NCBI RefSeq assembly: GCF_900129765.1
Contig: NZ_FQWU01000001.1
Span: forward strand, 1,240,001-1,304,000
DNA: 64,000 nt
From: Massilia sp. CF038
Lineage (GTDB): Bacteria > Pseudomonadota > Gammaproteobacteria > Burkholderiales > Burkholderiaceae_D
Direction: 5' to 3'
A program made the translations under genes and the position numbers. Of the stretch, positions 2,180-49,757 are shown piece by piece. Under the pieces are notes generated by a model. It saw only the letters and a list, made by a program, of their open reading frames with translations. It ran no database searches and was not told the DNA's origin. Position 1 is the first letter of the stretch. Each line of letters opens with the position of its first letter.

Positions 2180-3025
2180 TTACAACGCCGTCCGCAGCGC
2201 GAACAATTCCGGGAACAGCACCACGTCCAGCATCTTGCGCAGATAACTTACCCCGGCCGTACCGCCAGTGCCGGTCTTGAAGCCGATGATGCGTTCGACC
2301 GTGGTCACGTGACGGAAGCGCCAGAAGCGGAAGGCAGTCTCCAGGTCCACCAGCTTTTCGGCCAGCTCATACAGCGCCCAGTGCTGCGTCGGATCCTGAT
2401 ACACACCCAGCCACGCTGCCTTGACCGATTCGTCATGCGTGGTTGGCTTGGTCCAGTCGGCATGAAGCCGTTCCGGTGCAATGGCAAAGCCGCTGCGTGC
2501 CAGCAGCATCACCGCTTCGTCGTAGACTGAAGGCGCATGCAGCTCGCGGTCGAGAATCGTGTGCGCGTCGGTGGCGGTTTCGTGCACGGCCAGCAGGGCC
2601 GCGTTCTTGTTCCCGAGGATGAATTCAAGCTCGCGGTACTGGTAGGACTGAAAGCCCGAGGACGCGCCCAGATACGGCCGGATGGCGGTGTACTCGGGCG
2701 GCGTCATGGTGGCAAGTACGTCCCAGGCATGCACCAGCTGGTCCATGATGCGCGCCACCCGCGCCAGCATCTTGAAGGCGGGCGGCAGTTCGCCGGCGCG
2801 CAGGTGCACGCGCACCGCCTGCATTTCGTGCAGCATCAGCTTGAGCCACAATTCGCTGGTCTGATGCTGAATGATGAACAGCATCTCATTATGATTAGGC
2901 GAGCGCGGATGCTGGGCGTTGAGGATCTGTTCCAGACCCAGGTAGTCGCCATAGCTCATCGCTTCGCTGAAATCCATCTTGGCGCCGTGCCAGTTGGCCG
3001 GGCATTTTTGTTCGTCGTTGGACAT
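2180..3025 (-). CDS. kynA: tryptophan 2,3-dioxygenase
   Basis: Heme enzyme that oxidises L-tryptophan to N-formylkynurenine, the first step of the kynurenine pathway in the cytoplasm. The 281-residue length is normal for bacterial TDO. Recognisable family stretches are the substrate/heme region [16 protein letters not shown], the heme-ligand region [16 protein letters not shown] and the C-terminal [13 protein letters not shown]. The start ATG (reverse strand, 3025) lies 13 nt after the kynU stop, so kynU and kynA form an operon with kynU first. Kynurenine formamidase (kynB), often the third member, is not within the window. Confidence 0.95.
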
Positions 3026-3038
3026 GGTGTGGTTCCGG

Positions 3039-4283
3039 TCAGGTCACTGCGGTGCGGCGCGCCGCAAGGTCGTAGGCCTTGTCGTCGAGGATCTGGCGCA
3101 GGATCTCGACTGCGTCCCATACCTCGGCAAAGCTTGTATACAAAGGGGTAAAACCAAAACGCATGATGGCCGGCTCGCGGTAGTCGCCAATCACGCCACG
3201 CGCGATCAGCGCCTGCATCACCGCGTAGCCGTGCGGATGGGTGAAGCTGACCTGGCTGCCGCGCAGCGCATGCGCGCGCGGCGTCACCAGACCCAATGGA
3301 TGGCTGGCGCAGCGCGCTTCGACCAGTTCGATGAACAAGTCAGTCAGGGCCAGCGATTTGGCGCGAATGGCGTGCATGTCGGTCTGCTCAAAGATCTCCA
3401 GGCCGCATTCGACCAGCGTGAGCGAGACGATCGGCTGGGTGCCACACAGGGCGCGCCCGATCCCTTCCGTCGGCACAAAGTGGGGCGCCATCGCGAACGG
3501 ATTGGCATGCCCCCACCAGCCCGACAGCGGCTGGGTGAATGCAGCCTGGTGGCGCTGCGGTACCCAGATGAAGGCGGGCGCGCCCGGGCCGCCATTCAAG
3601 TACTTGTAGGTACAGCCCACGGCCAGGTCGGCGCCAGCGGCGTGCAGGTCGACCGGCACGGCACCGGCCGAATGGGCCAGGTCCCAGATCACCAGTGCGC
3701 CCTGGGCGTGGGCATGGGCCGTTAGGGCCGCCATGTCGTGCTGGTAGCCAGTGCGGTAGTTCACGTGCGTGAGCATCAGCACGGCGCAGTCGGCGTCAAT
3801 CGCGTCCGGGATCTGGTCGACCGAATCGACCAGCCGCACTTCGTAGCCGCGCGCCAGCCAGCTGGCCAGGCCTTCCGCCATGTAAATATCGGTAGGGAAG
3901 TTGCTGCGCTCGGTGACGATCACGCGCCGGCCTGTGCCCGCGCCATGCTCCTGCATGTGCAGGGCAGCCGCCAGGGCCTTGAACAGGTTGAGCGAGGTGG
4001 TATCGTTGACGACAACTTCGCCGGGCGCCGCGCCAATCAGCTTGCCCAGACGGTCGCCCAGGCGTTTGGGTAGGTCGAACCAGCCAGCCGTATTCCAGCT
4101 GCGGATCAGGTCCATGCCCCATTCGCGCGCGACCACGTCCTGCGCCCGCGCCAGAGCGGCAGCAGGGCGGGCGCCCAGCGAGTTGCCGTCCAGGTAGATC
4201 ACGTCAGCGGGCAGGGCGAACTGTTGGCGCAGCCCGGCCAGTGGGTCGGCCGCGTCACAGTCCAGGCAATCTTGTCGATTCAT
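3039..4283 (-). CDS. kynU: kynureninase
   Basis: PLP-dependent hydrolase converting L-kynurenine to anthranilate and alanine (or 3-hydroxykynurenine to 3-hydroxyanthranilate). Length 414 residues is typical. The substrate pocket stretch [11 protein letters not shown] lies at residues 30-40. The aspartate motif [13 protein letters not shown] lies near 198-210, and the Schiff-base lysine is Lys227 in [12 protein letters not shown], the same number as in the well-studied Pseudomonas enzyme. It is the first gene of the kynU-kynA operon. Its promoter must lie in the AT-rich 550-bp region shared divergently with flhDC. Confidence 0.95.
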
Positions 4284-4647
4284 ACAGATACCCCAAAAAA
4301 TACTTTAAGCCTAAATTACTTGGGCGAAGCTGCGCAGTTTACCAAGAAATGGCATTTGAAACAGGTTGTAACGATGAAAAGTCTAGAATGTTTTTATGCT
4401 ACTATTGCCCGCGATTCAATCTACGCACGATCTTTTCGCGACTTTTTCGACTTTTCTCAAAAATTTTTGAAAAAAGCCCTCAAGTTTCCAAAAGCGCTGC
4501 CGTAACCGGATCAGACAAGGGGAAATCGGTCTGAAAAATATTTTCAAACTGCCCTAAAGATTCGGAAAAATCCGACGTTACTAGGACAACGAGACGAAAT
4601 ATTTTTTGTCCGGTAGCACCAGGTTCAGCAGTAAATCACCTTCATTC

Positions 4648-4669
4648 CGCCCCTGTTATCATAGGGGCG
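4648..4669. promoter_or_regulatory. inverted repeat in flhDC leader
   Basis: CGCCCCT, an 8-nt loop, then AGGGGCG form a perfect 7-bp stem about 165 bp upstream of the flhD start. It could be a protein-binding site or an RNA hairpin in the leader. No run of T follows, so it does not look like a terminator. Confidence 0.4.
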
Positions 4670-4687
4670 CGACAATGATCCGCCAGG

Positions 4688-4702
4688 GTTTGTCAGACAA
4701 AC
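4688..4702. promoter_or_regulatory. 15-nt palindrome in flhDC leader
   Basis: GTTTGTCAGACAAAC is symmetric about a central A. It lies 133 bp upstream of the flhD start. Its size and symmetry fit a dimeric regulator site; the regulator is unknown. Confidence 0.4.
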
Positions 4703-4835
4703 TCCTACGGATCTATCTCGCCATTCACCGACGCAAAATACAGCCAACGGCCTATTCCTGAATAATTCTCTTCGGGTCAAAATGTATCTCACTGGCAATA
4801 ACACTTAGCCAGGCAACGGATTGAAGGAGATGGAA

Positions 4836-5153
4836 ATGACTGCGAACGACATGATGGCGGAAATTCGTGATGCGAACCTGAGCTACCTGATGCTGGCCCA
4901 GCAGATGATCCGCGCTGACAAGGTGACCGCGATCTTCCGTCTCGGCATCGCAGCTGACATCGCTGACCTGATCGAAGGCATGAGCAACGCCCAGATTCTG
5001 AAGCTGGCTGGCGGCAACATGATGCTGGCGCGCTTCCGCTTCGATGATGGTGCTATTCTGTCCATGCTGACCAATTACAATAAAGACCGCGGACTGGCCC
5101 AGTCGCACGCTGCCATCCTGATGGCTGGCCAGGCTGTCGAAGAAATCGCTTAA
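4836..5153 (+). CDS. flhD: flagellar master regulator subunit FlhD
   Basis: Forms the FlhD4C2 complex that activates class 2 flagellar genes with sigma-70. The protein from ATG 4836 is 105 residues and begins MTANDMMAEIRDANLSYLML, matching the family. Upstream in-frame TTG (4821) and ATG (4830) codons exist. However, the strong AAGGAG at 4824-4829 sits 6 nt before 4836, which decides the start. The helix stretch NLSYLMLAQQMIRADK and the ending characteristic of FlhD (VEEIA) are present. flhC follows after 24 bp. FlhDC, rather than FleQ, heads the flagellar hierarchy here, as in enterobacteria and Burkholderiales. Confidence 0.95.
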   Translation: MTANDMMAEIRDANLSYLMLAQQMIRADKVTAIFRLGIAADIADLIEGMSNAQILKLAGGNMMLARFRFDDGAILSMLTNYNKDRGLAQSHAAILMAGQAVEEIA

Positions 5154-5177
5154 GCTCGTTGTCAACGGAGGCGCGCC

Positions 5178-5729
5178 ATGTCCAAGAAAAGCGTAGTGAC
5201 GGAGGCCCAGGAAATCCAGCTGGCTATCGAACTGATCCAGCTTGGCGCGCGCCTGCAACTGCTTGAAACCGAAGTCTCGCTGTCGCGCGAGCGCCTGCTC
5301 AAGCTGTACAAAGAACTCAAGGGCGTGTCGCCGCCCAAGGGCATGCTGCCGTTTTCGACCGACTGGTTCCTGACCTGGCAGCCGAACATCCATTCTTCGC
5401 TGTTCATCAACATCCATAAATTCCTGGTTGACCATGCCGGTGCCACTGGCATCGAAGCCGTCATGAAGGCCTACAAGCTGTACCTCGAACAAATGCCGCC
5501 CGAAGCTGGTGAAGAGCCGCTGCTGTCGCTCACGCGCGCCTGGACCCTGGTGCGTTTCTTCCAAAGCAATATGCTGGCGCTGGCGCCTTGCCAGAAATGC
5601 CAGGGCAAGTTCGTGGTCAATTGCATGGACTTGAATCAGCATTATCTGTGCGGCCTGTGCCACATGCCTTCGCGCGCTGGCAAGACCAAAAAATCCCGGG
5701 ACGCCGCCGCGGCGCTGCTGAACGCGTGA
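5178..5729 (+). CDS. flhC: flagellar master regulator subunit FlhC
   Basis: DNA-contacting, zinc-binding partner of FlhD. Length 183 residues. Four cysteines positioned for zinc are Cys138, Cys141, Cys158 and Cys161 (CQKC ... CGLC), within one residue of the E. coli numbering. The N-terminal helices contain LAIELIQLGARLQLLE. An AGGAG-like site (GGAGG at 5167) precedes the ATG. The stop codon overlaps a possible GTG start of the next gene, and a hairpin with a T-run begins 24 bp after the stop. Confidence 0.95.
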   Translation: MSKKSVVTEAQEIQLAIELIQLGARLQLLETEVSLSRERLLKLYKELKGVSPPKGMLPFSTDWFLTWQPNIHSSLFINIHKFLVDHAGATGIEAVMKAYKLYLEQMPPEAGEEPLLSLTRAWTLVRFFQSNMLALAPCQKCQGKFVVNCMDLNQHYLCGLCHMPSRAGKTKKSRDAAAALLNA

Positions 5730-6535
5730 CGCGGCCACGCGCAGCCACACAGCAAGGGCAGGGCGCGAGCCTTGCCCTTTTTCGCTTATGGCGCGCACCC
5801 GCCGTACAGGCCTTGCTGCTGCAGTGCGCCGCGTTTCCCCTGACCCTGATGGCGGTGTATGTGCTGGCGCGTGCCGGTATGGCGCCCGGCTACGCAGGTG
5901 CAGCGCTGATCCAGGGCGGCTTTGCGGCGCTACTGGCGCACTTGCGCAAACTGGCTGTGTGGTGGCTGGCGATTCAATTGGTGTTCCCGCTGGCGCTGCT
6001 CGAGTCGCGCCAGTTGGGCATCGCACCTGGCCTGTTCCTGGCCGGGTTTCTGTTTTTGCTGATGCTGTACTGGTCGACCTTCCGCACCCAGGTGCCGTAC
6101 TACCCGTCGGGCAAGCGTGTGTGGGATGAAGTGGCGCGCTTGCTGCCGCCGGACCGGCCCGTGTGCGCGATCGATATTGGCAGTGGCCTTGGTGGCCTGG
6201 TGCTGGACCTGGCGGCGCGCCGGCCCGAGTCGACCTTTGTCGGCATCGAGCTCGCGCCCTTGCCATGGATGGTGTCGTGGCTGCGTGCACGCGTGAGCGG
6301 TTCGGGTGCCCGTTTTGTGCGCGGCGACTATCACGATCTGGACTTCGGCAACTACGATGCGGTGTTCGCCTACCTGTCGCCAGCGGCCATGTCGGACCTG
6401 TGGCACAAGGCCGCGCGCGAGATGCGTTCTGGTGCCATTTTGCTCAGTTATGAATTTGTGATAACGGAAAAAGCGCCTGATCTTAGTATCTTGCCTACAG
6501 GGCGCGGACCCACCCTTTATATCTGGCACTTTTAG
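5726..6535 (+). CDS. membrane-anchored class I SAM-dependent methyltransferase
   Basis: Up to 269 residues. Two or three hydrophobic segments fill roughly residues 30-120 (for example LALLESRQLGIAPGLFLAGF). A Rossmann methyltransferase domain follows, with the SAM-binding motif AIDIGSGLGGLVLDLA and the acidic FVGIELAP. The substrate is unknown. The gene lies between flhC and motA, so a link to motility is possible but not shown. The start is uncertain. GTG 5726 overlaps the flhC stop and would be translationally coupled. Downstream options are TTG 5813 and ATG 5849, but ATG 5849 would cut the first hydrophobic segment. A terminator-like hairpin lies within the first 20 codons if 5726 is used. 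Confidence 0.7.
   Translation: MTRPRAATQQGQGASLALFRLWRAPAVQALLLQCAAFPLTLMAVYVLARAGMAPGYAGAALIQGGFAALLAHLRKLAVWWLAIQLVFPLALLESRQLGIAPGLFLAGFLFLLMLYWSTFRTQVPYYPSGKRVWDEVARLLPPDRPVCAIDIGSGLGGLVLDLAARRPESTFVGIELAPLPWMVSWLRARVSGSGARFVRGDYHDLDFGNYDAVFAYLSPAAMSDLWHKAAREMRSGAILLSYEFVITEKAPDLSILPTGRGPTLYIWHF
5754..5782 (+). terminator. probable intrinsic terminator after flhC
   Basis: AAGGGCAGGGC, loop GCGA, GCCTTGCCCTT, then a T-run: an 11-bp stem with a single G-T pair. It lies just past flhC. It also lies inside the reading frame of the following methyltransferase if that gene starts at 5726, which is unusual. Confidence 0.65.
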
Positions 6536-6690
6536 GCGACAAACTGGCCGTTTTCCCTTGCTCCAGCAGGCGTTCTCACGCTATTGTAGTTCCGTATGTA
6601 AATTAGTCGAGTCAGATGATTCATGCTCTTGCCAAGAACGCCACGGCTTGATTGCAACCTTGCTCGAATCACCATGGGGAGTGTGCGCAC

Positions 6691-7551
6691 TTGTTAGTCA
6701 TAATCGGATACATCGTCGTTTGCGCATCGGTGTTCGGTGGCTTTGCAGCCAGCGGCGGCCACCTCGCCTCGCTGTTCCAGCCACTCGAACTGGTGATGAT
6801 CGGCGGCGCCGCGCTCGGCGCTTTTTTTGTCGGTAACAACGGCAAGTCGATCAAAGCCACCATGAAGGCGCTGCCCTCGCTGTTCAAGGGTTCGCGCTAC
6901 ACCAAAGACCTGTACATGGAGATGATGTCGCTGCTGTTCGACGTCCTGTCCAAGGTGCGCAAGGAAGGCTTGATGTCGATTGAAGGCGACATCGACAAGC
7001 CCGAAGAGAGCCCGCTCTTTTCCAAGTATCCGGGGGTCCTGTCGGACCACCACATCGTCGAATTCATGACCGATTATCTGCGCCTGATGGTGTCCGGGAA
7101 CATGGACGCCTTCCAGATCGAAAACCTGATGGACAACGAGATCGAGACCCACCACCACGAAGGTGCGGTGCCGGCCCACGTGATCGCCAAACTGGGCGAC
7201 GGCTTGCCGGCTTTCGGTATTGTCGCTGCCGTGATGGGCGTGGTGCACACCATGGAATCGGTGGGCATTCCGCCGGCCGAACTGGGGATCCTGATTGCCA
7301 AGGCGCTGGTCGGTACCTTCCTCGGCATTTTGCTGGCCTACGGCTTCGTCGGTCCGCTTTCCAGCCTGCTCGAACAGAAGCTGGAAGAAGAAGCCAAGAT
7401 GTTCCAGTGCGTGAAAGTGACGCTGCTGGCAAGCCTGAACGGCTATGCGCCGGCGCTGGCCGTGGAGTTTGGCCGCAAGGTGCTGTACTCGACCGAACGC
7501 CCGACCTTCAATGAGCTTGAAGATCACATCAAGAAGTCGAAGACCAAGTAA
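6691..7551 (+). CDS. motA: flagellar motor stator protein MotA
   Basis: Proton-channel stator subunit in the inner membrane. I place the start at TTG 6691, giving 286 residues beginning (M)LVIIGYIVVCASVFGGFAA. This aligns with the E. coli N-terminus, and GGGGAG at 6676-6681 lies 9 nt upstream. The longer frame from TTG 6652 adds residues with no family counterpart. Four membrane segments are visible: two near the N-terminus, and two near residues 170-220 (PAFGIVAAVMGVVHTMESVG and LVGTFLGILLAYGFVGPLSS). The cytoplasmic loop carries the charged stretch that contacts FliG. motB follows 32 bp later. Confidence 0.95.
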   Translation: MLVIIGYIVVCASVFGGFAASGGHLASLFQPLELVMIGGAALGAFFVGNNGKSIKATMKALPSLFKGSRYTKDLYMEMMSLLFDVLSKVRKEGLMSIEGDIDKPEESPLFSKYPGVLSDHHIVEFMTDYLRLMVSGNMDAFQIENLMDNEIETHHHEGAVPAHVIAKLGDGLPAFGIVAAVMGVVHTMESVGIPPAELGILIAKALVGTFLGILLAYGFVGPLSSLLEQKLEEEAKMFQCVKVTLLASLNGYAPALAVEFGRKVLYSTERPTFNELEDHIKKSKTK

Positions 7552-43781: not shown

Positions 43782-43857
<76 letters not shown>

Positions 43858-43890: not shown

Positions 43891-43966
43891 GTCCCCATCG
43901 TCTAGAGGCCTAGGACATCACCCTTTCACGGTGAGTACGGGGGTTCGAATCCCCCTGGGGACGCCA
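43891..43966 (+). tRNA. tRNA-Glu (TTC), copy 1
   Basis: A 76-nt cloverleaf with encoded CCA. Acceptor GTCCCCA pairs with TGGGGAC. The anticodon loop CTTTCAC gives TTC. It lies 33 nt after tRNA-Ala and shares its promoter. A terminator follows at 44000. Confidence 0.97.
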
Positions 43967-44074: not shown

Positions 44075-44150
44075 GTCCCCATCGTCTAGAGGCCTAGGAC
44101 ATCACCCTTTCACGGTGAGTACGGGGGTTCGAATCCCCCTGGGGACGCCA
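44075..44150 (+). tRNA. tRNA-Glu (TTC), copy 2
   Basis: Identical over all 76 nt to copy 1, while the flanks are unrelated. It follows the terminator of copy 1 and has its own terminator. A weak -10-like TAGAAT at 44050-44055 is the only promoter hint, so it may depend on read-through or its own weak promoter. Confidence 0.97.
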
Positions 44151-44158
44151 GTTGGAAC

Positions 44159-44187
44159 AAAAAGCCGCTTTCGAGCGGCTTTTTGCA
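44159..44187 (+). terminator. intrinsic terminator after tRNA-Glu copy 2
   Basis: AAAAAGCCGCT, tetraloop TTCG, AGCGGCTTTTT. The A-run on the other side makes it usable for the convergent protease gene ending at 44197. Confidence 0.9.
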
Positions 44188-44196
44188 TTGTGGCGC

Positions 44197-46086
44197 CTAC
44201 CACGGCCGATAGGCAAAGCCTGGCGGCATGGCAAACATGCCGGGCAGGGCGAACGGCTGGGGCAGGGGAATGCCATAGCCTTGCTGCCCCGGCAGCATGG
44301 CGCCCAAATTGGCCGGCACCGTTTGCTGCTGCAGCCCGACCGCCAGCACGGCATCGGGCAAGCCCAGGCCCACCCGGCTCGGATCGGCCAGACTGACCCG
44401 GCGCGCACTCATGCGTATCAACTGGAACAAGCGTTCGACCCGGTCCGCGTTGCGCGCCTGGAATACGGTCTGGAATTCCGGATGGTGGGCCAGCACCAGC
44501 GCGGCCAGGCCGGTGATATGGGGCGCTGCCATCGAAGTGCCGTCCCAGGCCGCATAGTTATTTGGCGGCACCGAGGACGCGATGGCCACACCTGGCCCGC
44601 ACACTGCCACCTGCGGACCGTAGCAGCTGAAGCTGGCCGTAAAGTAGCCGCCCGCATCCACGTTTTGCGTCAGGGTCTGGGCATGGTAGCTGTCGGGCGG
44701 GAATTCATCGAGCTTGCCGATAGCCGCCACCGCCAGCACATTGGGCGATGAAGCCGGGTACTGCACCGGACCGCCCGAATTGCCGGCCGCGACAATACAG
44801 GCAATGCCGGCCCGGCGCGCACGCTGGATTTGCTGCTCCAGCGCTTCGGACACCTCGGCCCCGCCCAGGCTCAGGTTGACCACATCGATCTGGTGTTCAA
44901 TGCAGTATTCCAGTGCGTCGATCAGCTGGCTGACTTGCCCGCCCGGGAACAGCTTGCAGGCATGCAGCTCGGCGTCAGGCGCGAAGCCGCGAATACCGTA
45001 AGCCAGTTCGGCACCGCCAATGACGCCCGCGCAGTGCGAGCCGTGGCCGAGCGTGTCGTCGTTCCAGGTATCGGGCGAGGTTTTTTTATTGACGATATCG
45101 AAGCCGTTGTGCACGCGCCTGAGTTCCTCATGCGTGGTGGCGATGCCGGAATCGATGACCGCAATCTTGATGCCCTGGCCGCGGTAGGTGGCTGGCAACT
45201 GGTCCATGCGCATGGCCTTCTGGCCCCAGCCCACGGTCTTTTGCTGCGGGAAGCCGGCCAGCGAGGGCCAGTCGGCCAGGGCGCGCAGGGTCACCACGTT
45301 GGGCTCGTCGGGCGAGATGTCGGGGTCGCGCTGGTAGAAGCTCCAGTAGTCCGACTTGGGCTTGACATACAGACTACGTACCGAGCTTGCCGTTTCTCCG
45401 AACAACGACAAGGTGACCTGTCCGCTGGCATCGGTTGCCGCAGTCGCTGGCAGCATGCTGCCAAAGAGCGACACTTCGGCGTTCGCCACCGGCGCGCCAT
45501 CCTTGCTCACCACCTTGATAACGGCAGTCAGCGCGGGCCCGCTGCTGGGCGTGACGCTGGTGACAAAGCTGGGCTGCAGATGTGACGCGTCCATCAGGCC
45601 CAGGTGCTGATCGCGCTCGACCAGCAGACGGCCCTGGCCCTGCTGGTGCAGCACGCCTGCCTTTTGCTCGGTCATGCGGGCGACCAGTATTCCCTGGCTG
45701 CCGCCCATGCCATTAGCCAAAGCGCCCACCACATTTTTGGGGCCGACCGTATCGACGACGTCAATGTCGGGACTGTTGCGCAGCGCTTGTTCCACCGTGG
45801 ACAGCGACAGCGGCGACAAGCCCAGCGGCGCCAGCCCCTCGGGATGGCGCGGTGCGATCAGAAATTGTTTTTTGCGTTCGCCGATCTGCTTGCCGCCGGC
45901 CGCGGCAGTGCCGCTTTCGGGTGTCGCGGGGGACGCCGCTGGTGCGGCGGCGCGCGCTTCAGGAGCGGCAGCGCGTGCTTCAGCAGGCGCGCGGTTGGGA
46001 CCGCGCCGTTCACTGGCGCCATTTTCAGCGCCATCAGGATTGACATCGAGAGGACCGCCTGGTCCGCTATCGGGTGTTTTAGGCAT
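44197..46086 (-). CDS. subtilisin-family (S8) serine protease
   Basis: A 629-residue S8 protease with no visible signal peptide; residues 1-65 are Ala/Pro/Glu-rich. Residues about 70-168 form a prodomain-like region (IDVVDTVGP, LLVERDQHLGLMD). Residues about 180-270 look like an Ig or carboxypeptidase-regulatory-type insert. The catalytic domain spans about 300-580 with Asp312 (AVIDSGIATT), His348 (LGHGSHCAGV), Asn436 (VAAGNSGG) and Ser518 (WDGTSMAAP). The C-terminus is Pro/Gly/Met-rich. Its start overlaps the end of the 98-residue prodomain-like gene by 8 nt, and the glycine-zipper repeat protein heads the operon. Probable function: a self-processing endopeptidase acting on, or together with, the repeat protein. 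The export route is unclear. Confidence 0.88.
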   Translation of the reverse strand: MPKTPDSGPGGPLDVNPDGAENGASERRGPNRAPAEARAAAPEARAAAPAASPATPESGTAAAGGKQIGERKKQFLIAPRHPEGLAPLGLSPLSLSTVEQALRNSPDIDVVDTVGPKNVVGALANGMGGSQGILVARMTEQKAGVLHQQGQGRLLVERDQHLGLMDASHLQPSFVTSVTPSSGPALTAVIKVVSKDGAPVANAEVSLFGSMLPATAATDASGQVTLSLFGETASSVRSLYVKPKSDYWSFYQRDPDISPDEPNVVTLRALADWPSLAGFPQQKTVGWGQKAMRMDQLPATYRGQGIKIAVIDSGIATTHEELRRVHNGFDIVNKKTSPDTWNDDTLGHGSHCAGVIGGAELAYGIRGFAPDAELHACKLFPGGQVSQLIDALEYCIEHQIDVVNLSLGGAEVSEALEQQIQRARRAGIACIVAAGNSGGPVQYPASSPNVLAVAAIGKLDEFPPDSYHAQTLTQNVDAGGYFTASFSCYGPQVAVCGPGVAIASSVPPNNYAAWDGTSMAAPHITGLAALVLAHHPEFQTVFQARNADRVERLFQLIRMSARRVSLADPSRVGLGLPDAVLAVGLQQQTVPANLGAMLPGQQGYGIPLPQPFALPGMFAMPPGFAYRPW

Positions 46087-46375
46087 GTGGATTCCTTTCC
46101 GACCGATGCAGAAAGCCGGCAGTCTTGTCCAGCAGCGACAAGGGCCGGTCCCGCTCGATCAGCAGATGAGGTGAGTTACGGAAGCGCTGCTCGAAGTCGG
46201 CCGCCAGTTCAGGCTCGACGGCAAGCACCGCCGTGTGTGGCTGTTGTGGCGGCCCGATGGTGTCGACCACCTCCAGGTTGGGATCGTCTTGCAGCGCATT
46301 GAGAAAATCGGTCAGCGTGTCGCCTTCGTGGCGTGCACGGACAATGAAGCGGGTGCGTTCCATCGCGTTCTCCAT
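46079..46375 (-). CDS. free-standing prodomain-like protein next to the S8 protease
   Basis: A 98-residue protein (MENAMERTRFIVRARHEGDT at the start). It shares with the prodomain-like region of the neighbouring protease the pattern P-N-L-E-VVDTIGP (protease: P-D-I-D-VVDTVGP) and LLIERDRPLSLLD (protease: LLVERDQHLGLMD). This looks like a stand-alone I9-type propeptide. Known for I9 proteins: they chaperone folding and inhibit subtilisins. Inferred role: inhibitor or chaperone of the adjacent protease, or a duplicated prodomain. GGGAG at 46387-46383 lies 7 nt before the ATG but inside a hairpin arm. The stop overlaps the protease start. Confidence 0.7.
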   Translation of the reverse strand: MENAMERTRFIVRARHEGDTLTDFLNALQDDPNLEVVDTIGPPQQPHTAVLAVEPELAADFEQRFRNSPHLLIERDRPLSLLDKTAGFLHRSERNPHA

Positions 46376-46380
46376 GGTGG

Positions 46381-46440
46381 GGCTCCCGCGCTTGCGCGCG
46401 CAGGTGCGGGAGCCGTTCTGCTAGCCCTGTGGCCGGGCTA
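46381..46440 (-). promoter_or_regulatory. tandem hairpins between repeat-protein gene and prodomain-like gene
   Basis: In the 70-nt gap, TAGCCC-7 nt-GGGCTA (46440-46422) precedes a 9-bp perfect stem (GGCTCCCGC ... GCGGGAGCC; 46414-46406 with 46389-46381). The ribosome-binding GGGAG of the next gene is within the 3' arm. No T-run follows, so the structures look translational or mRNA-stabilising rather than terminating. Confidence 0.55.
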
Positions 46441-46445
46441 TTGGA

Positions 46446-47522
46446 TTAGTGAATTGTCGGCTGCTGGTATTGCTGCATGCCTTGTTGCGGGTAGTAGCCG
46501 TTGCCTGCCATTTGCGCCTGCTGCTGTGCCAGTTGCGCTTGCTGGGCGTAGGCTTGCGAGATCGGGTCGGCGCCAAACGGCAGCATGCGGCCAATGCCGC
46601 CCGCCACCCCCCCAATGGTGCTGCCCAGGCCGGAGTTGCCAAACAGCCCGCCAATGGCGCCGCCCAGCGGCTGGCCCACCTGGCCGATCAGGTTGCCAAA
46701 CCAGCCTTGCGGGGCCATCTGGCCTTGCTGGGCTTGAACTTGCGGTTGCTGCCCAATGGATTGCATCAGCAGTGCCATCTGTTGCTGCTGTTGCTGCAGT
46801 TGCTGCTGCACCTGGGCCAGATGCTGAAATACCTGCGCATGCTGCTGCATGATTTGCTGCAGCTGTGGCGCTTGCATCGTTTGCGCCTGCGGGTCGGCGC
46901 TGAAAGGCAGATAACGGCTCAGCCCGCCGGCAACACCGCCAATCGCGCTGCCCAGTCCGGCATTACCGAACAGGCCGCCAATGGCGCCACCGAGCGGCTG
47001 GCCGACCTGCCCAATCAGATTGCCCACCCAGCCTTGCGGATTGAGCTGCTGGGCCTGCGCCATTTGCTCGAGCTGCGCTTGCTGCTGCAACTGGGCTTGT
47101 TGCACTGGATCGGCGCCGAATGGCAGCATGCGGCCGATGCCGCCGGCAATGCCGCCGATCGTGCTGCCCAGGCCGCTGTGGCCGAACTGGCCGCCGATCA
47201 TGCCACCAAGGGGGCGTCCCACCTGGCCGATCAGGTTGCCGAACCAGCCCTGTGGATTGTATTGCTGCGCTTGCTGCATTTGTGCCAGCTGGGCTTGCTG
47301 CATCTGTGCTTGTTGCACAGGATCGGCTGCGAACGGCAGGAAGCCGCCACCGATGCCGCCAGCTGCCTGGCCAATCTGGCGGCCCAGGTTGGCGTTGCCC
47401 AGCAGGCCACCCACGCCACGGCCAATCAAGCCGCCCAGTGGGGCGCCCAGCAGGCTGCCAAAGAAGCCTTGAGGCGCATATTGTTGTTCCATTCCATACG
47501 GTACGTTTTGAAATTCATTCAT
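46446..47522 (-). CDS. glycine-zipper and glutamine-rich repeat protein
   Basis: A 358-residue protein I do not recognise. AAGGAGAT lies 6 nt before the ATG at 47522. It has four repeats of about 50 residues starting at 17, 90, 162 and 271: PQGWFGNLIGQVGQPLGGAI, then GGLFGN-type and IGGVAGGIGRMLPF-type glycine zippers, ending GADP. Gln-rich linkers separate them (QQAQLQQQAQLEQMAQAQQ), the longest about 60 residues before repeat 4. Glycine zippers (GxxxG, alanine-rich) usually pack in membranes or amyloid-like assemblies. No signal peptide is visible. It is the first gene of the operon with the prodomain-like protein and the S8 protease. Possible roles are precursor of protease-released membrane-active peptides or an assembling matrix protein; both are guesses. 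Confidence 0.85.
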   Translation of the reverse strand: MNEFQNVPYGMEQQYAPQGFFGSLLGAPLGGLIGRGVGGLLGNANLGRQIGQAAGGIGGGFLPFAADPVQQAQMQQAQLAQMQQAQQYNPQGWFGNLIGQVGRPLGGMIGGQFGHSGLGSTIGGIAGGIGRMLPFGADPVQQAQLQQQAQLEQMAQAQQLNPQGWVGNLIGQVGQPLGGAIGGLFGNAGLGSAIGGVAGGLSRYLPFSADPQAQTMQAPQLQQIMQQHAQVFQHLAQVQQQLQQQQQQMALLMQSIGQQPQVQAQQGQMAPQGWFGNLIGQVGQPLGGAIGGLFGNSGLGSTIGGVAGGIGRMLPFGADPISQAYAQQAQLAQQQAQMAGNGYYPQQGMQQYQQPTIH

Positions 47523-47891: not shown

Positions 47892-49085
47892 ATGTCCCAG
47901 CCACTGCCGCCCGCCACCACGCTCGCCATTTTTTGCAAGGTGGTCGACAACTATGGCGACATCGGCATCTGCTGGCGCATGGCGCGCCAGTTCGCCGCCG
48001 AGCATGGGGTGGACGTCACCCTCTGGGTGGACGATCTGGCCAGCTTTCAGCGCATCTGTCCACAAGTGCGCAGCACGGCGCCCAGCCAGCAGATTGCAGG
48101 CGTAACGGTGCGCCACTGGCATGACCAGGCAGCGCAGTTCACGCCAGCCGAGGTGGCCGACATCGTGATTGAGTTTTTCGCCTGTGACATCCCGCCTGGC
48201 TATGTTGCGGCCATGGCGCAGCGCGCCCAGCGTCCCGTCTGGCTCAATTACGAGGGCTTGAGCGCCGAAGAATGGGTGGAGGGTTGCCATACGCTGCCGT
48301 CACCCCATCCGCGCCTGCCCTTGACCAAGCATTTCTTTTTCCCCGGCTTCACCGAGCGCACCGGCGGCTTGCTGCGCGAAACGGATCTGGCGCAAGCGCG
48401 CCAGCAGTTCCAGGCCGATCGCGCTGCCCAGCACGCCTTCCTGGCGCCGTTTGGCGTGCGTGCCGAAGAGATGGCGGCGCTGAAAGTGTCGCTGTTCTGC
48501 TACCCCTCCGCCCCGGTTGCGGACCTGCTGGCAGCATGGCAGGGCGGGGCGGCGCCGGTGCTGTGTCTGGTGCCGGAAGGCGTGGCGACCCAGGCAGTGG
48601 CAGATTTCCTGGAGCAGGCGCCTGTGGCTGGCGCCAGCCGCACCCGGGGTGCGCTGACGCTGCGCGTGCTGCCCTTTGTGCCCCAGCCCGACTACGACCG
48701 TCTGCTGTGGGCCTGCGATCTTAATTTTGTGCGCGGCGAAGATTCCTGGGTACGCGCCCAGTGGGCCGCGCGCCCCTTCGTCTGGCACATTTATGAGCAG
48801 GACGAGAATTTGCACCACAAGAAGCTGCGCGCTTTCCTGCAGCGGTTCGCGGGCGGCGCCGCGCTGGACGCGTTTTCGCTGCTGTGGAACGGGGCCGGGC
48901 AGGGCGCGCAGGATTGCGCCAGCCTGTGGCCGGCCCTGCAGGCGGCATTGCCCGCGCTGGCCGTGCGCGCCCAGGCCTGGGAAACGGCCCAGCTGGCGCA
49001 CGGCGATGTGTGCAGCAATCTCCTGGCCTTTGCTGCTGTTGTTTCGTCCGTGAATCCAGAAAACTCGGGTATAATGCCCGGTTAA
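47892..49085 (+). CDS. earP: EF-P arginine rhamnosyltransferase EarP
   Basis: Transfers rhamnose from dTDP-rhamnose to Arg32 of EF-P, a modification needed to relieve polyproline stalling in some beta- and gammaproteobacteria. Length 397 residues. The N-terminal catalytic-site motif FCKVVDNYGDIGICWR (Asp19, Asp23) and the C-terminal nucleotide-sugar motif RGEDSWVRAQWA (Glu283 region) are intact. The glycine-rich FFFPGFTERTGGL lies between. efp follows 96 bp downstream, and its -10 element lies inside the last codons of earP. Confidence 0.95.
   Translation: MSQPLPPATTLAIFCKVVDNYGDIGICWRMARQFAAEHGVDVTLWVDDLASFQRICPQVRSTAPSQQIAGVTVRHWHDQAAQFTPAEVADIVIEFFACDIPPGYVAAMAQRAQRPVWLNYEGLSAEEWVEGCHTLPSPHPRLPLTKHFFFPGFTERTGGLLRETDLAQARQQFQADRAAQHAFLAPFGVRAEEMAALKVSLFCYPSAPVADLLAAWQGGAAPVLCLVPEGVATQAVADFLEQAPVAGASRTRGALTLRVLPFVPQPDYDRLLWACDLNFVRGEDSWVRAQWAARPFVWHIYEQDENLHHKKLRAFLQRFAGGAALDAFSLLWNGAGQGAQDCASLWPALQAALPALAVRAQAWETAQLAHGDVCSNLLAFAAVVSSVNPENSGIMPG
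49070..49075 (+). promoter_or_regulatory. -10 element upstream of efp
   Basis: Consensus TATAAT within GGGTATAATGCCC, 106 bp before the efp start and inside the 3' end of earP. No good -35 at standard spacing is visible. Confidence 0.5.
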
Positions 49086-49181: not shown

Positions 49182-49757
49182 ATGAAACCTGCAAAAGAAA
49201 TTCGTGTTGGCAACATCATCATGGTTGACAGCAAGCCATTCATCGTTCTGCGTTCGGATGTCAACGGTTCGAGCCGCACGGGCTTCACCTACAAATGGAA
49301 GATGAAAAATCTTCTGACCAACAGCCCGCTGGAAAACGTGTTCCGCGGCGACGACAAGTTCGACGTGGTTGTGCTCGACAAGAAGCCAGTGACCTACTCG
49401 TACTTCGCCGATCCGCTGTTCGTCTTCATGGATGGTGAATACAACCAGTACGAAATCGAAGAAGAAAACCTGGGCGATGCTTTGCATTACCTGAAGGACG
49501 GCATGGAATGCGAAGCTGTGTTCTACGACGGCAAGGCGATCTCGGTTGAACTGCCAACCACCATCGCCCGCAAAGTGGCGTACTCGGAACCAGCCGTCAA
49601 GGGCAACACGTCGGGCAACGTCCTGAAAGAAGCCAAGCTGGAAAACGCCATCGAAGCCCACGCCCACACCGTGCAAGTACCGCTGTTCGTGAGCACCGAC
49701 GACGTCATCGAAATCGATACCCGTACCAACGAGTACAAGCGCGTGGTCCGCAACTAA
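49182..49757 (+). CDS. efp: translation elongation factor P
   Basis: Rescues ribosomes stalled at polyproline. Length 191 residues with three beta-barrel domains. The loop that enters the peptidyl-transferase centre reads [11 protein letters not shown], with Arg32 at the tip, which is the EarP-type (rhamnosylated) form rather than the lysine form. The C-terminal domain ends [15 protein letters not shown] terminator follows. Several proteins here carry polyproline runs (50106-50200 region, haloperoxidase linker) that would need it. Confidence 0.97.

What the first reader, a model, noticed from the sequence alone, without database searches (positions are those of the whole stretch)
44197..47522. 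Three-gene operon: glycine-zipper repeat protein, free prodomain-like protein, S8 protease
Seen: one operon encodes a 358-residue protein with four about 50-residue glycine-zipper repeats and Gln-rich linkers. It also encodes a 98-residue protein sharing VVDT[VI]GP and LL[VI]ERD patterns with the prodomain region of the next gene, and a complete S8 protease. None of the three has a signal peptide. Known: I9 propeptides fold and inhibit subtilisins; glycine zippers form membrane pores or amyloid-like packing. Inference: the protease, restrained by the free prodomain-like protein, trims the repeat protein at the Gln-rich linkers to release membrane-active or assembling units. I know of no named system with this combination.
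Basis: partly seen in the sequence, partly recalled or inferred. Interest (0 to 1): 0.78.

Follow-up and report, generated by a model that had tools for sequence, protein, structure and literature searches.

The report
Repeat protein, protease and free prodomain
Relatives of the bacterium Massilia carry a conserved three-gene cassette that makes a protein of repeated membrane-loving segments, a subtilisin-type protease that probably cuts it into pieces, and a loose copy of the protease's own safety catch; I found no name for the whole set.

Summary
The three genes are real and form a conserved operon. In 78 genome loci found through the protease, all 69 with recognisable repeat units also carry the 98-residue gene, in the same order (two of the 69 matches are weak); none of 6 assessable loci without such units does. 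The small protein is a homologue of the protease's own N-terminal domain (profile match 98.8%, E 4e-17), is predicted to have the same fold, and in three genomes is fused to the protease. All three genes show purifying selection in 13 species pairs. A strong hairpin separates repeat gene from small gene in 61 of 61 measured loci. Some divergent relatives keep the layout with other amphipathic units. Best reading: a bacterial counterpart of fungal Kex2-processed repeat proteins, with a free prodomain as restraint. Cutting is more likely at the conserved Leu-Pro-Phe ending of each unit than in the Gln-rich linkers. Cleavage, inhibition and export are inferred, not shown. P2 has no I9 sequence match. 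No exporter or immunity gene was recognised among the commonest neighbours.

The parts
46446..47522 (-). P1: 358-aa repeat protein, first gene; almost no charges (0 K, 6 R, 4 D, 3 E); ends ..TIH
   Evidence: conserved in relatives; dN/dS 0.05-0.24 in 13 pairs of relatives
47325..47474 (-). P1 unit 1 (residues 17-66, PQGFF..LPF)
47106..47255 (-). P1 unit 2 (residues 90-139, PQGWF..LPFGADP)
46890..47039 (-). P1 unit 3 (residues 162-211, PQGWV..LPFSADP)
46563..46712 (-). P1 unit 4 (residues 271-320, PQGWF..LPFGADP)
46381..46414 (-). Intercistronic hairpin between P1 and P2 (arms 46381-46389 and 46406-46414), -25.3 kcal/mol
   Evidence: hairpin of -14.7 or stronger in 61 of 61 relatives measured (8 of 69 not measured), control
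46079..46375 (-). P2: free prodomain-like protein, 98 aa as read; likely start at 46363 (94 aa)
   Evidence: predicted fold
44197..46086 (-). P3: 629-aa S8 protease, overlaps P2 by 8 nt
45577..45891 (-). P3 N-terminal prodomain (about residues 66-170), homologous to P2
   Evidence: fold of the orthologue
45277..45564 (-). P3 Ig-like domain (about residues 175-270), between prodomain and catalytic domain
   Evidence: Big_1 in 29 and CarboxypepD_reg in 26 of 41 orthologues at E 1 or better, below the curated cut-offs in the window protein; strands in this stretch of the model
44404..45180 (-). P3 subtilisin catalytic domain (residues 303-561); Asp312 45151-45153, His348 45043-45045, Asn436 44779-44781, Ser518 44533-44535
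44159..44184 (-). Terminator-like hairpin with T run just after P3, -19.5 kcal/mol
   Evidence: not among the sites listed by the scan

Best explanation
A self-contained operon for a proteolytically processed repeat protein. P1 is made in excess as a precursor of several hydrophobic or amphipathic units, each opened by a Pro-Gln-Gly motif and closed by Leu-Pro-Phe. P3 is the dedicated maturation protease. It has a docked prodomain of its own, then an Ig-like domain, then the catalytic domain. P2 is a free second copy of that prodomain which binds mature P3 with its C-terminal Pro-Leu-Ser-Leu-Phe-type tail in the active-site cleft and holds it off in the cytoplasm until the products are wanted. 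The released units then insert in membranes or assemble at the surface. Shown here: conserved order and co-occurrence, P2-prodomain homology, folds by prediction, purifying selection, hairpin. Inferred: that P1 is the substrate and in excess, where it is cut, that P2 inhibits, export, and what the units do.
For: Of 78 loci, 69 of 69 with recognisable units have P2 between P1 and P3 on one strand, no order violation (L142 and L145 P2 are weak, i-E 0.016 and 0.005); 0 of 6 assessable loci without units have P2; L107 (P2 present) and L121, L130 are cut by contig ends. Tree: P2 was lost at least twice inside the P2-bearing clade (L139, whose sister L127 has it fused; L123+L126, whose sister L117 has it), each time with eroded units in P1 (L126 P1 is partial). 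P2 vs prodomain profile 98.8%, E 4.2e-17. Natural P2-P3 fusions in L100, L105, L127. The L100 fusion model has two tandem beta-alpha-beta-beta-alpha-beta domains and matches unprocessed pro-subtilisin E over 522 columns, TM 0.84 by target length, versus about 311 columns for mature subtilisins: the P3 prodomain probably sits as in pro-subtilisin. P2 tail PLS[LM]F in 49 of 70. Units: LPF 191, xP[FWY] 213, PQGx 204 of 231; inner units more alike within a genome (0.79) than between (0.63). Hairpin P1/P2 in 61 of 61, median -26.5 vs -16.5 for shuffles. Some distant partners of P3 also look like precursors: Azoarcus P1 with three tandem copies of a 25-residue amphipathic peptide, and an acidic-leader (26 D+E, 4 K+R in 78) / cationic (21 K+R, 0 D+E in 67) protein upstream of P3 in L162. 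Streptomyces P3 lost the catalytic Ser (G, T or A) and there P1 has no units and P2 is absent.
Against: No cleavage, inhibition or export is shown. P2 does not match Pfam I9 nor a three-sequence subtilase propeptide profile (prob 1.9). Foldseek finds a procarboxypeptidase prodomain first, E 0.01, and no subtilisin propeptide in the top 50. The Ig domain between prodomain and protease is not usual (recalled). No exporter, immunity or modification gene was recognised among the commonest neighbours. LPF is absent from P1 of L109, L112, L118, L132, L135 and L145 although P2 is present (L145 has other Pro-aromatic ends). P2 loss with unit loss rests on about three events. L172 has a trio-like layout whose small gene is not detectably P2 (prob 4.4); L173 and L162 have P3 with an intact Ser and no P2. 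The window's own P2 tail is SLL, not SLF, and runs about 17 residues further. First-unit amphipathicity is not above shuffles (105 of 1000). 68 of 900 coding windows fold as well as the hairpin.
Confidence: 0.5

Rival explanations
1. P1 is a finished self-assembling protein (surface or intracellular fibre, glycine zippers as glue, Gln-rich linkers as spacers) and P3 is a quality-control protease that clears misassembled P1; P2 limits P3.
For: P1 is about as strongly constrained as P3 (dN/dS 0.05-0.24 vs 0.04-0.19), has very few charges and ends in [LIMV]-His in 65 of 74 loci, which suggest that the whole protein matters.
Against: Unit ends carry a conserved subtilisin-type motif; some distant partners look like precursors of amphipathic peptides rather than one fibre protein.
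Confidence: 0.25
2. P2 is a folding helper for P3 (prodomain chaperone in trans), not an inhibitor.
For: Prodomains of mesophilic subtilases are both chaperone and inhibitor (PMC10580911, start of abstract, passages). P2 and P3 lie close: of 69 loci counted, 62 overlap or are at most 40 nt apart, 3 are fused, 4 are further apart.
Against: P3 keeps a complete prodomain of its own, probably docked; lineages without P2 keep the catalytic Ser (L123, L126, L139).
Confidence: 0.15
3. An antibacterial polyprotein: units are bacteriocin-like peptides for killing neighbours.
For: Glycine-zipper bacteriocins exist (Cdz, PMC5380434 passages); the Azoarcus unit resembles frog antimicrobial peptides below the Pfam cut-off (20.4 vs 22 bits); L162 partner strongly cationic.
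Against: No exporter or immunity gene recognised among the commonest neighbours; purifying selection in all 13 pairs, no sign of diversification; the window's P1 carries almost no charge.
Confidence: 0.1

Closest known systems
Kex2-processed repeat proteins (KEPs) of fungi, e.g. Rep1 of Ustilago, Ece1 of Candida (PMC7329392, passages read)
   Same: One precursor with repeats released by a subtilisin-family protease (Kex2 as a subtilase is recalled); some products are water repellents or membrane-active.
   Different: KEPs have an ER signal peptide and dibasic sites, and Kex2 is a general processing protease (recalled). Here there is no signal peptide by eye, no dibasic site in P1, a protease in the same operon, and a free prodomain.
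PopC/PopD of Myxococcus xanthus (PMC6434023, passages read)
   Same: A subtilisin-like protease without a signal peptide forms a complex with a separate protein (PopD) that inhibits its secretion until starvation; then it cleaves one target.
   Different: PopC's N-terminal part is described as having no recognizable domains; PopD homology to P2 was not tested; no repeat precursor is mentioned in the passages read.
Free propeptide-like inhibitors of fungi (POIA1, yeast IB2; PMC10580911, passages read)
   Same: Free inhibitors whose C-terminal residues affect inhibitory strength; that they have the prodomain fold is recalled.
   Different: Fungal proteins; P2 has no sequence match to I9 in Pfam or to the propeptide profile used.
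Cdz contact-dependent glycine-zipper bacteriocins (PMC5380434, passages read)
   Same: Glycine-zipper, aggregation-prone hydrophobic products.
   Different: Cdz has a type I exporter, small single toxins (86 and 84 aa) and a membrane immunity protein; none was recognised around this trio.

Membership tests
Peptidase S8 (subtilases), P3 | Match to PF00082 above curated cut-off | tested here: met
   153 bits, cut-off 21.8; 41 of 41 rows of A3 match
Peptidase S8 (subtilases), P3 | Asp-His-Ser triad and oxyanion Asn | tested here: met
   Asp312, His348, Asn436, Ser518 in the window; invariant in the 41 rows of A3; Ser lost in the four Streptomyces homologues seen
Inhibitor I9 / subtilase propeptide, P2 | Sequence match to the I9 family | tested here: not met
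   No member of 18 matches a Pfam I9 model at E 1; profile against three subtilase propeptides prob 1.9; PDB profile search 0 hits
Inhibitor I9 / subtilase propeptide, P2 | beta-alpha-beta-beta-alpha-beta fold | tested here: met
   Predicted, pLDDT 77.6; same topology in both domains of the L100 fusion; Foldseek best hit procarboxypeptidase prodomain, E 0.01 only
Inhibitor I9 / subtilase propeptide, P2 | Homology to the prodomain of a subtilase | tested here: met
   hhalign to P3 N-domain 98.8%, E 4.2e-17
Inhibitor I9 / subtilase propeptide, P2 | Binds and inhibits its protease | not testable with these tools
   No complex prediction or assay available
Subtilase propeptide, P3 N-domain | Docked on the catalytic domain as in pro-subtilisin | tested here: inconclusive
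   L100 fusion model matches pro-subtilisin E 3whi over 522 columns, TM 0.84 by target length, rmsd 5.3; inferred from the score, coordinates not seen
Cdz-like bacteriocin system | Type I secretion genes and immunity gene next door | tested here: not met
   None recognised by eye among the 22 commonest neighbour clusters within about 6 kb in 78 loci (ORFs under 110 aa not clustered, so a small immunity gene could be missed)
Kex2-processed repeat protein | Signal peptide and dibasic sites between repeats | tested here: not met
   0 Lys in P1 and no Arg-Arg; no signal peptide by eye
Kex2-processed repeat protein | Tandem repeats flanked by a conserved protease motif, cut by a subtilisin-family protease | tested here: inconclusive
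   Motifs conserved, protease adjacent; cleavage not shown
PopC/PopD | Homology of either protein | not tested
   Sequences not fetched

The most novel reading that the evidence does not exclude
A bacterial, self-contained counterpart of Kex2-type repeat-precursor processing: one operon encodes the multi-unit precursor, a dedicated subtilase that excises the units at Leu-Pro-Phe ends, and a free copy of the prodomain that serves as a cytoplasmic off-switch. The module accepts different membrane-active units in different lineages and has turned into a pseudoprotease pair in Streptomyces.
Probability: 0.35. Interest if true: 0.8.

Novelty: new variant of a known kind. Interest (0 to 1): 0.62.

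Why it matters
Gene cassettes that pair a repeat precursor with its own protease and a free prodomain would add a route for bacteria to make membrane-active or self-assembling peptides. The free prodomain, its fusion forms and its repeated loss give a natural series for testing how a subtilase is kept silent inside a cell. P1 and P2 have no family in Pfam, NCBIfam or PADLOC, so annotation with those libraries does not show the operon, and the ready substrate-protease-inhibitor set could be tested in vitro at once.

Tried and rejected
Anti-phage system: P3 hits the PADLOC subtilase model (E 1e-23), but that is the S8 domain only; P1 and P2 hit nothing there. Mobile or viral origin: no match in 50,697 phage records, none confirmed in viral contigs, two plasmid records of 72,556, both Streptomyces. 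P1 as a plain membrane protein: hydropathy peaks 1.25-1.26 in 19-residue windows, below usual transmembrane level (level recalled). P1 hits in G093 and G008:C25 look like chance and an ordinary glycine-zipper protein (by eye) and were dropped. The P2 hit in G062 lies in P3's own frame and was dropped; the L123 P2 hit is a minus-strand match and was dropped.

P2 rows could not be placed on the P2 part of the fusion in a joint alignment, so the fusion model had only 3 rows there. No coordinates or domain-error map came back, so where P2 sits in the fusion is unknown. A first regular expression for the P2 tail was faulty and was replaced. In one search the label test is not informative (unlabelled rows are not counted) and was not used; 4 of 78 loci (L116, L129, L137, L141) were left out of the tree, 4 other rows added. 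In one search strict patterns miss many residues by spelling; only the Ser count and the window positions are used from it, with alignment A3 for the triad.

Counts: Ser is present in 72 of 78, Gly in 2 (Streptomyces), unreadable in 4 cut or frame-broken genes. In five of the 69 unit-bearing loci the units lie in more than one frame (L084, L089, L097, L120, L141). In one search, 8 of 69 loci were left out (P1 frame broken or gap over 200). In one search, 60 loci were used; in 42 none of 40 shuffles reached the observed energy; 68 of 900 coding windows did. The scan patterns are tuned to this family, so distant relatives are under-sampled.
Full report
WHAT IS THERE. On the minus strand of the window three genes follow each other: P1 (46446-47522, 358 aa), P2 (46079-46375, 98 aa; the orthologues point to a start four codons later) and P3 (44197-46086, 629 aa), P2 and P3 overlapping by 8 nt. 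P1 has four 50-residue units rich in GxxxG, joined by Gln-rich linkers (39-50% Gln, tail included). P3 is a subtilase with all catalytic residues, preceded by an N-terminal domain and a weakly recognised Ig-like domain. Pfam, NCBIfam and PADLOC have no family for P1 or P2. A terminator-like hairpin follows P3 and a strong hairpin lies between P1 and P2.

IS IT MORE THAN CHANCE. In 148 related genomes (own included) P3 N-domain matches occur in 23, of which 20 are strong (E below 1e-20); P1 and P2 searches of the same number found 21 and 20. After removing two P1 hits that look unrelated and one P2 hit that is P3's own prodomain, 18 genomes have all three side by side (G006, G010 and G015 have frame breaks in one or more genes, G032 is cut by a contig end and G020 P1 has a masked stretch). 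G062 has P1 and P3 only, G008 has only broken remnants of P2 and P3, and G034 has divergent versions. A scan of the collection of 84,980 species genomes with the P3 N-domain gave 78 loci, mostly Massilia, Duganella, Rugamonas, Noviherbaspirillum and relatives, plus MAGs labelled Acidobacteria, Azoarcus and Arthrobacter, and two Streptomyces. Of these, 69 have recognisable P1 units and all 69 have P2, in the order P1-P2-P3 on one strand (P2 of L142 and L145 is weak). L107 has P2 at a contig start; L121 and L130 cannot be judged; L123, L126, L129, L139, L146 and L147 have neither recognisable units nor P2. The trios sit in several different gene neighbourhoods (by eye). No fourth gene is common to them: the commonest neighbours are an EarP-like gene (46 loci), an amidase-like gene (31) and gltX (20), named by eye, which look like housekeeping synteny. 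A lactate-permease-like gene (9 loci) and an ABC ATPase (6 loci) also occur nearby; ORFs under 110 aa were not clustered. All three genes show dN/dS below 0.43 in 13 species pairs. Outside the family it is rare: 8 of 399 genomes of the order, own included (6 in the family, 2 weak), 2 of 274 of the class, 3 of 299 of the phylum (1 weak), 4 of 296 in the phylum of the Arthrobacter MAG (3 weak), 1 of 197 in its family (itself).

P2 IS THE PRODOMAIN, FREE. Profiles of P2 and of the P3 N-domain match at 98.8% probability, E 4.2e-17. P2 is predicted as beta-alpha-beta-beta-alpha-beta. In Noviherbaspirillum aerium, N. malthae and an Acidobacteria-labelled MAG, P2 and P3 form one open frame. The model of the first of these fusions has two such domains in tandem, then a stretch of strands, then the protease. 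It matches unprocessed pro-subtilisin E over 522 columns with TM 0.84 by target length (355), while mature subtilisins give about 311 columns and 0.88 of 275. Such a score is hard to reach unless a prodomain is docked as in pro-subtilisin, and the column count suggests that it is P3's own; I did not see coordinates, and the rmsd is 5.3. Against this, neither P2 nor the P3 N-domain is found by Pfam I9, a small set of true propeptides is not matched, and Foldseek with P2 alone finds other ferredoxin-like proteins, a procarboxypeptidase prodomain first. So: it works like, and is predicted to have the fold of, a subtilase propeptide; membership of I9 by sequence is not met. P2 ends in a short tail, PLS[LM]F in 49 of 70, with 9-25 residues from the ExD motif to the end; the window's own tail reads SLL. 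In known cases the propeptide tail lies in the active-site cleft like a product, and C-terminal residues affect the strength of free inhibitors (PMC10580911, passages).

P1 LOOKS LIKE A PRECURSOR. Units start PQG and end LPF, mostly followed by xxDP: 204, 191 and, for any x-Pro-aromatic, 213 of 231 units. The model was made from units that had both motifs, so these are not unbiased rates; six P1 proteins with P2 next to them lack LPF altogether. Pro at P2 and Phe at P1 is the classic subtilisin substrate pattern (suc-AAPF-pNA; recalled). Inner units resemble each other more within a genome (0.79) than between genomes (0.63), while the first unit differs from them (0.55) and is more alike between genomes (0.69) (59 loci), so inner units seem to be exchanged or recopied. 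The P1-P2 hairpin, with varied sequences but similar strength in 61 of 61 loci (median -26.5 against -16.5 for shuffles), fits a design in which P1 message outlasts or outnumbers P2-P3. Distant relatives are telling. Azoarcus P1 has one zipper-like unit and three near-identical 25-residue amphipathic peptides. L172 has a non-zipper amphipathic repeat with the same PQG start, Gln-rich linkers and ..TVH end, followed by an 80-aa gene and P3 (the small gene is not detectably P2). L162 has an acidic-leader, Arg-rich protein and another small ORF upstream of P3 with an intact Ser, without P2. In Streptomyces P3 has lost the catalytic Ser in three different ways, P1 is a Gln-rich protein without units, and P2 is absent.

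HOW IT PROBABLY WORKS. P1 is made in excess; P3 folds with its own prodomain; P2 caps the mature enzyme; on release P3 cuts P1 at unit ends; the units act in a membrane or assemble. The last steps have no direct evidence. Strong purifying selection and the lack of a recognised exporter or immunity gene speak against a classical bacteriocin. The association of P2 with intact units, lost together at least twice in the tree and absent with the dead protease, is the best hint that P2 matters for handling the units, but it rests on few events, and L162 and L173 have P3 with intact Ser but no P2.

WHAT IS KNOWN. Closest in logic are fungal Kex2-processed repeat proteins (PMC7329392, passages), PopC/PopD (PMC6434023, passages), free propeptide-like inhibitors (PMC10580911, passages) and Cdz glycine-zipper bacteriocins (PMC5380434, passages). 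Full-text searches aimed at the combination found nothing (no paper) or listings in which I saw no paper on it (the first 10 to 12 titles of 10 to 2,034 papers each); most subscription journals are not in that library, so this is weak evidence of novelty.

VERDICT. Observation confirmed. A new variant of known kinds, worth a direct test.

Noticed in passing
L146, L147 (Streptomyces genomes), L163, L164 (Streptomyces plasmids): P3 homologues with the catalytic Ser replaced by Gly, Thr or Ala, each after a Gln-rich protein: pseudoproteases with a kept partner.
   Followed up: partly
L162 5051-5488 and 5561-5983: Two small ORFs before a P3 with intact Ser: one with an acidic first half and an Arg-rich second half (21 K+R in 67), one acidic; no P2.
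   Followed up: partly
L172 about 2968-6784 (minus strand): Divergent trio-like locus in the same family: 454-aa repeat protein with AQ/AL-rich amphipathic units ending ..TVH, an 80-aa ORF, and P3.
   Followed up: partly
L173 2-2471: P3 homologue with intact Ser behind a 200-aa protein with two PQG-type segments; no P2.
   Followed up: no
P1 and P3 C-termini in the 78 loci: P1 ends in [LIMV]-His in 65 of 74 (TLH in 45) and P3 in Trp in 66 of 78; reason unknown.
   Followed up: no
L145 5358-5696: Arthrobacter MAG has an extra 107-aa ORF between P1 and P2, no Pfam match.
   Followed up: no
L127, L139: Two MAG contigs labelled Acidobacteria carry P3 inside the Oxalobacteraceae clade: transfer or misbinning.
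   Followed up: no
window 43891-43966 and 44075-44150: Two tRNA-Glu(ttc) genes just downstream of P3, after tRNA-Ala(ggc) 43782-43857.
   Followed up: no
window 47892-49085 and 49182-49757: EarP-like and EF-P-like genes next to the operon (names by eye); an EarP-like neighbour recurs in 46 of 78 loci.
   Followed up: no
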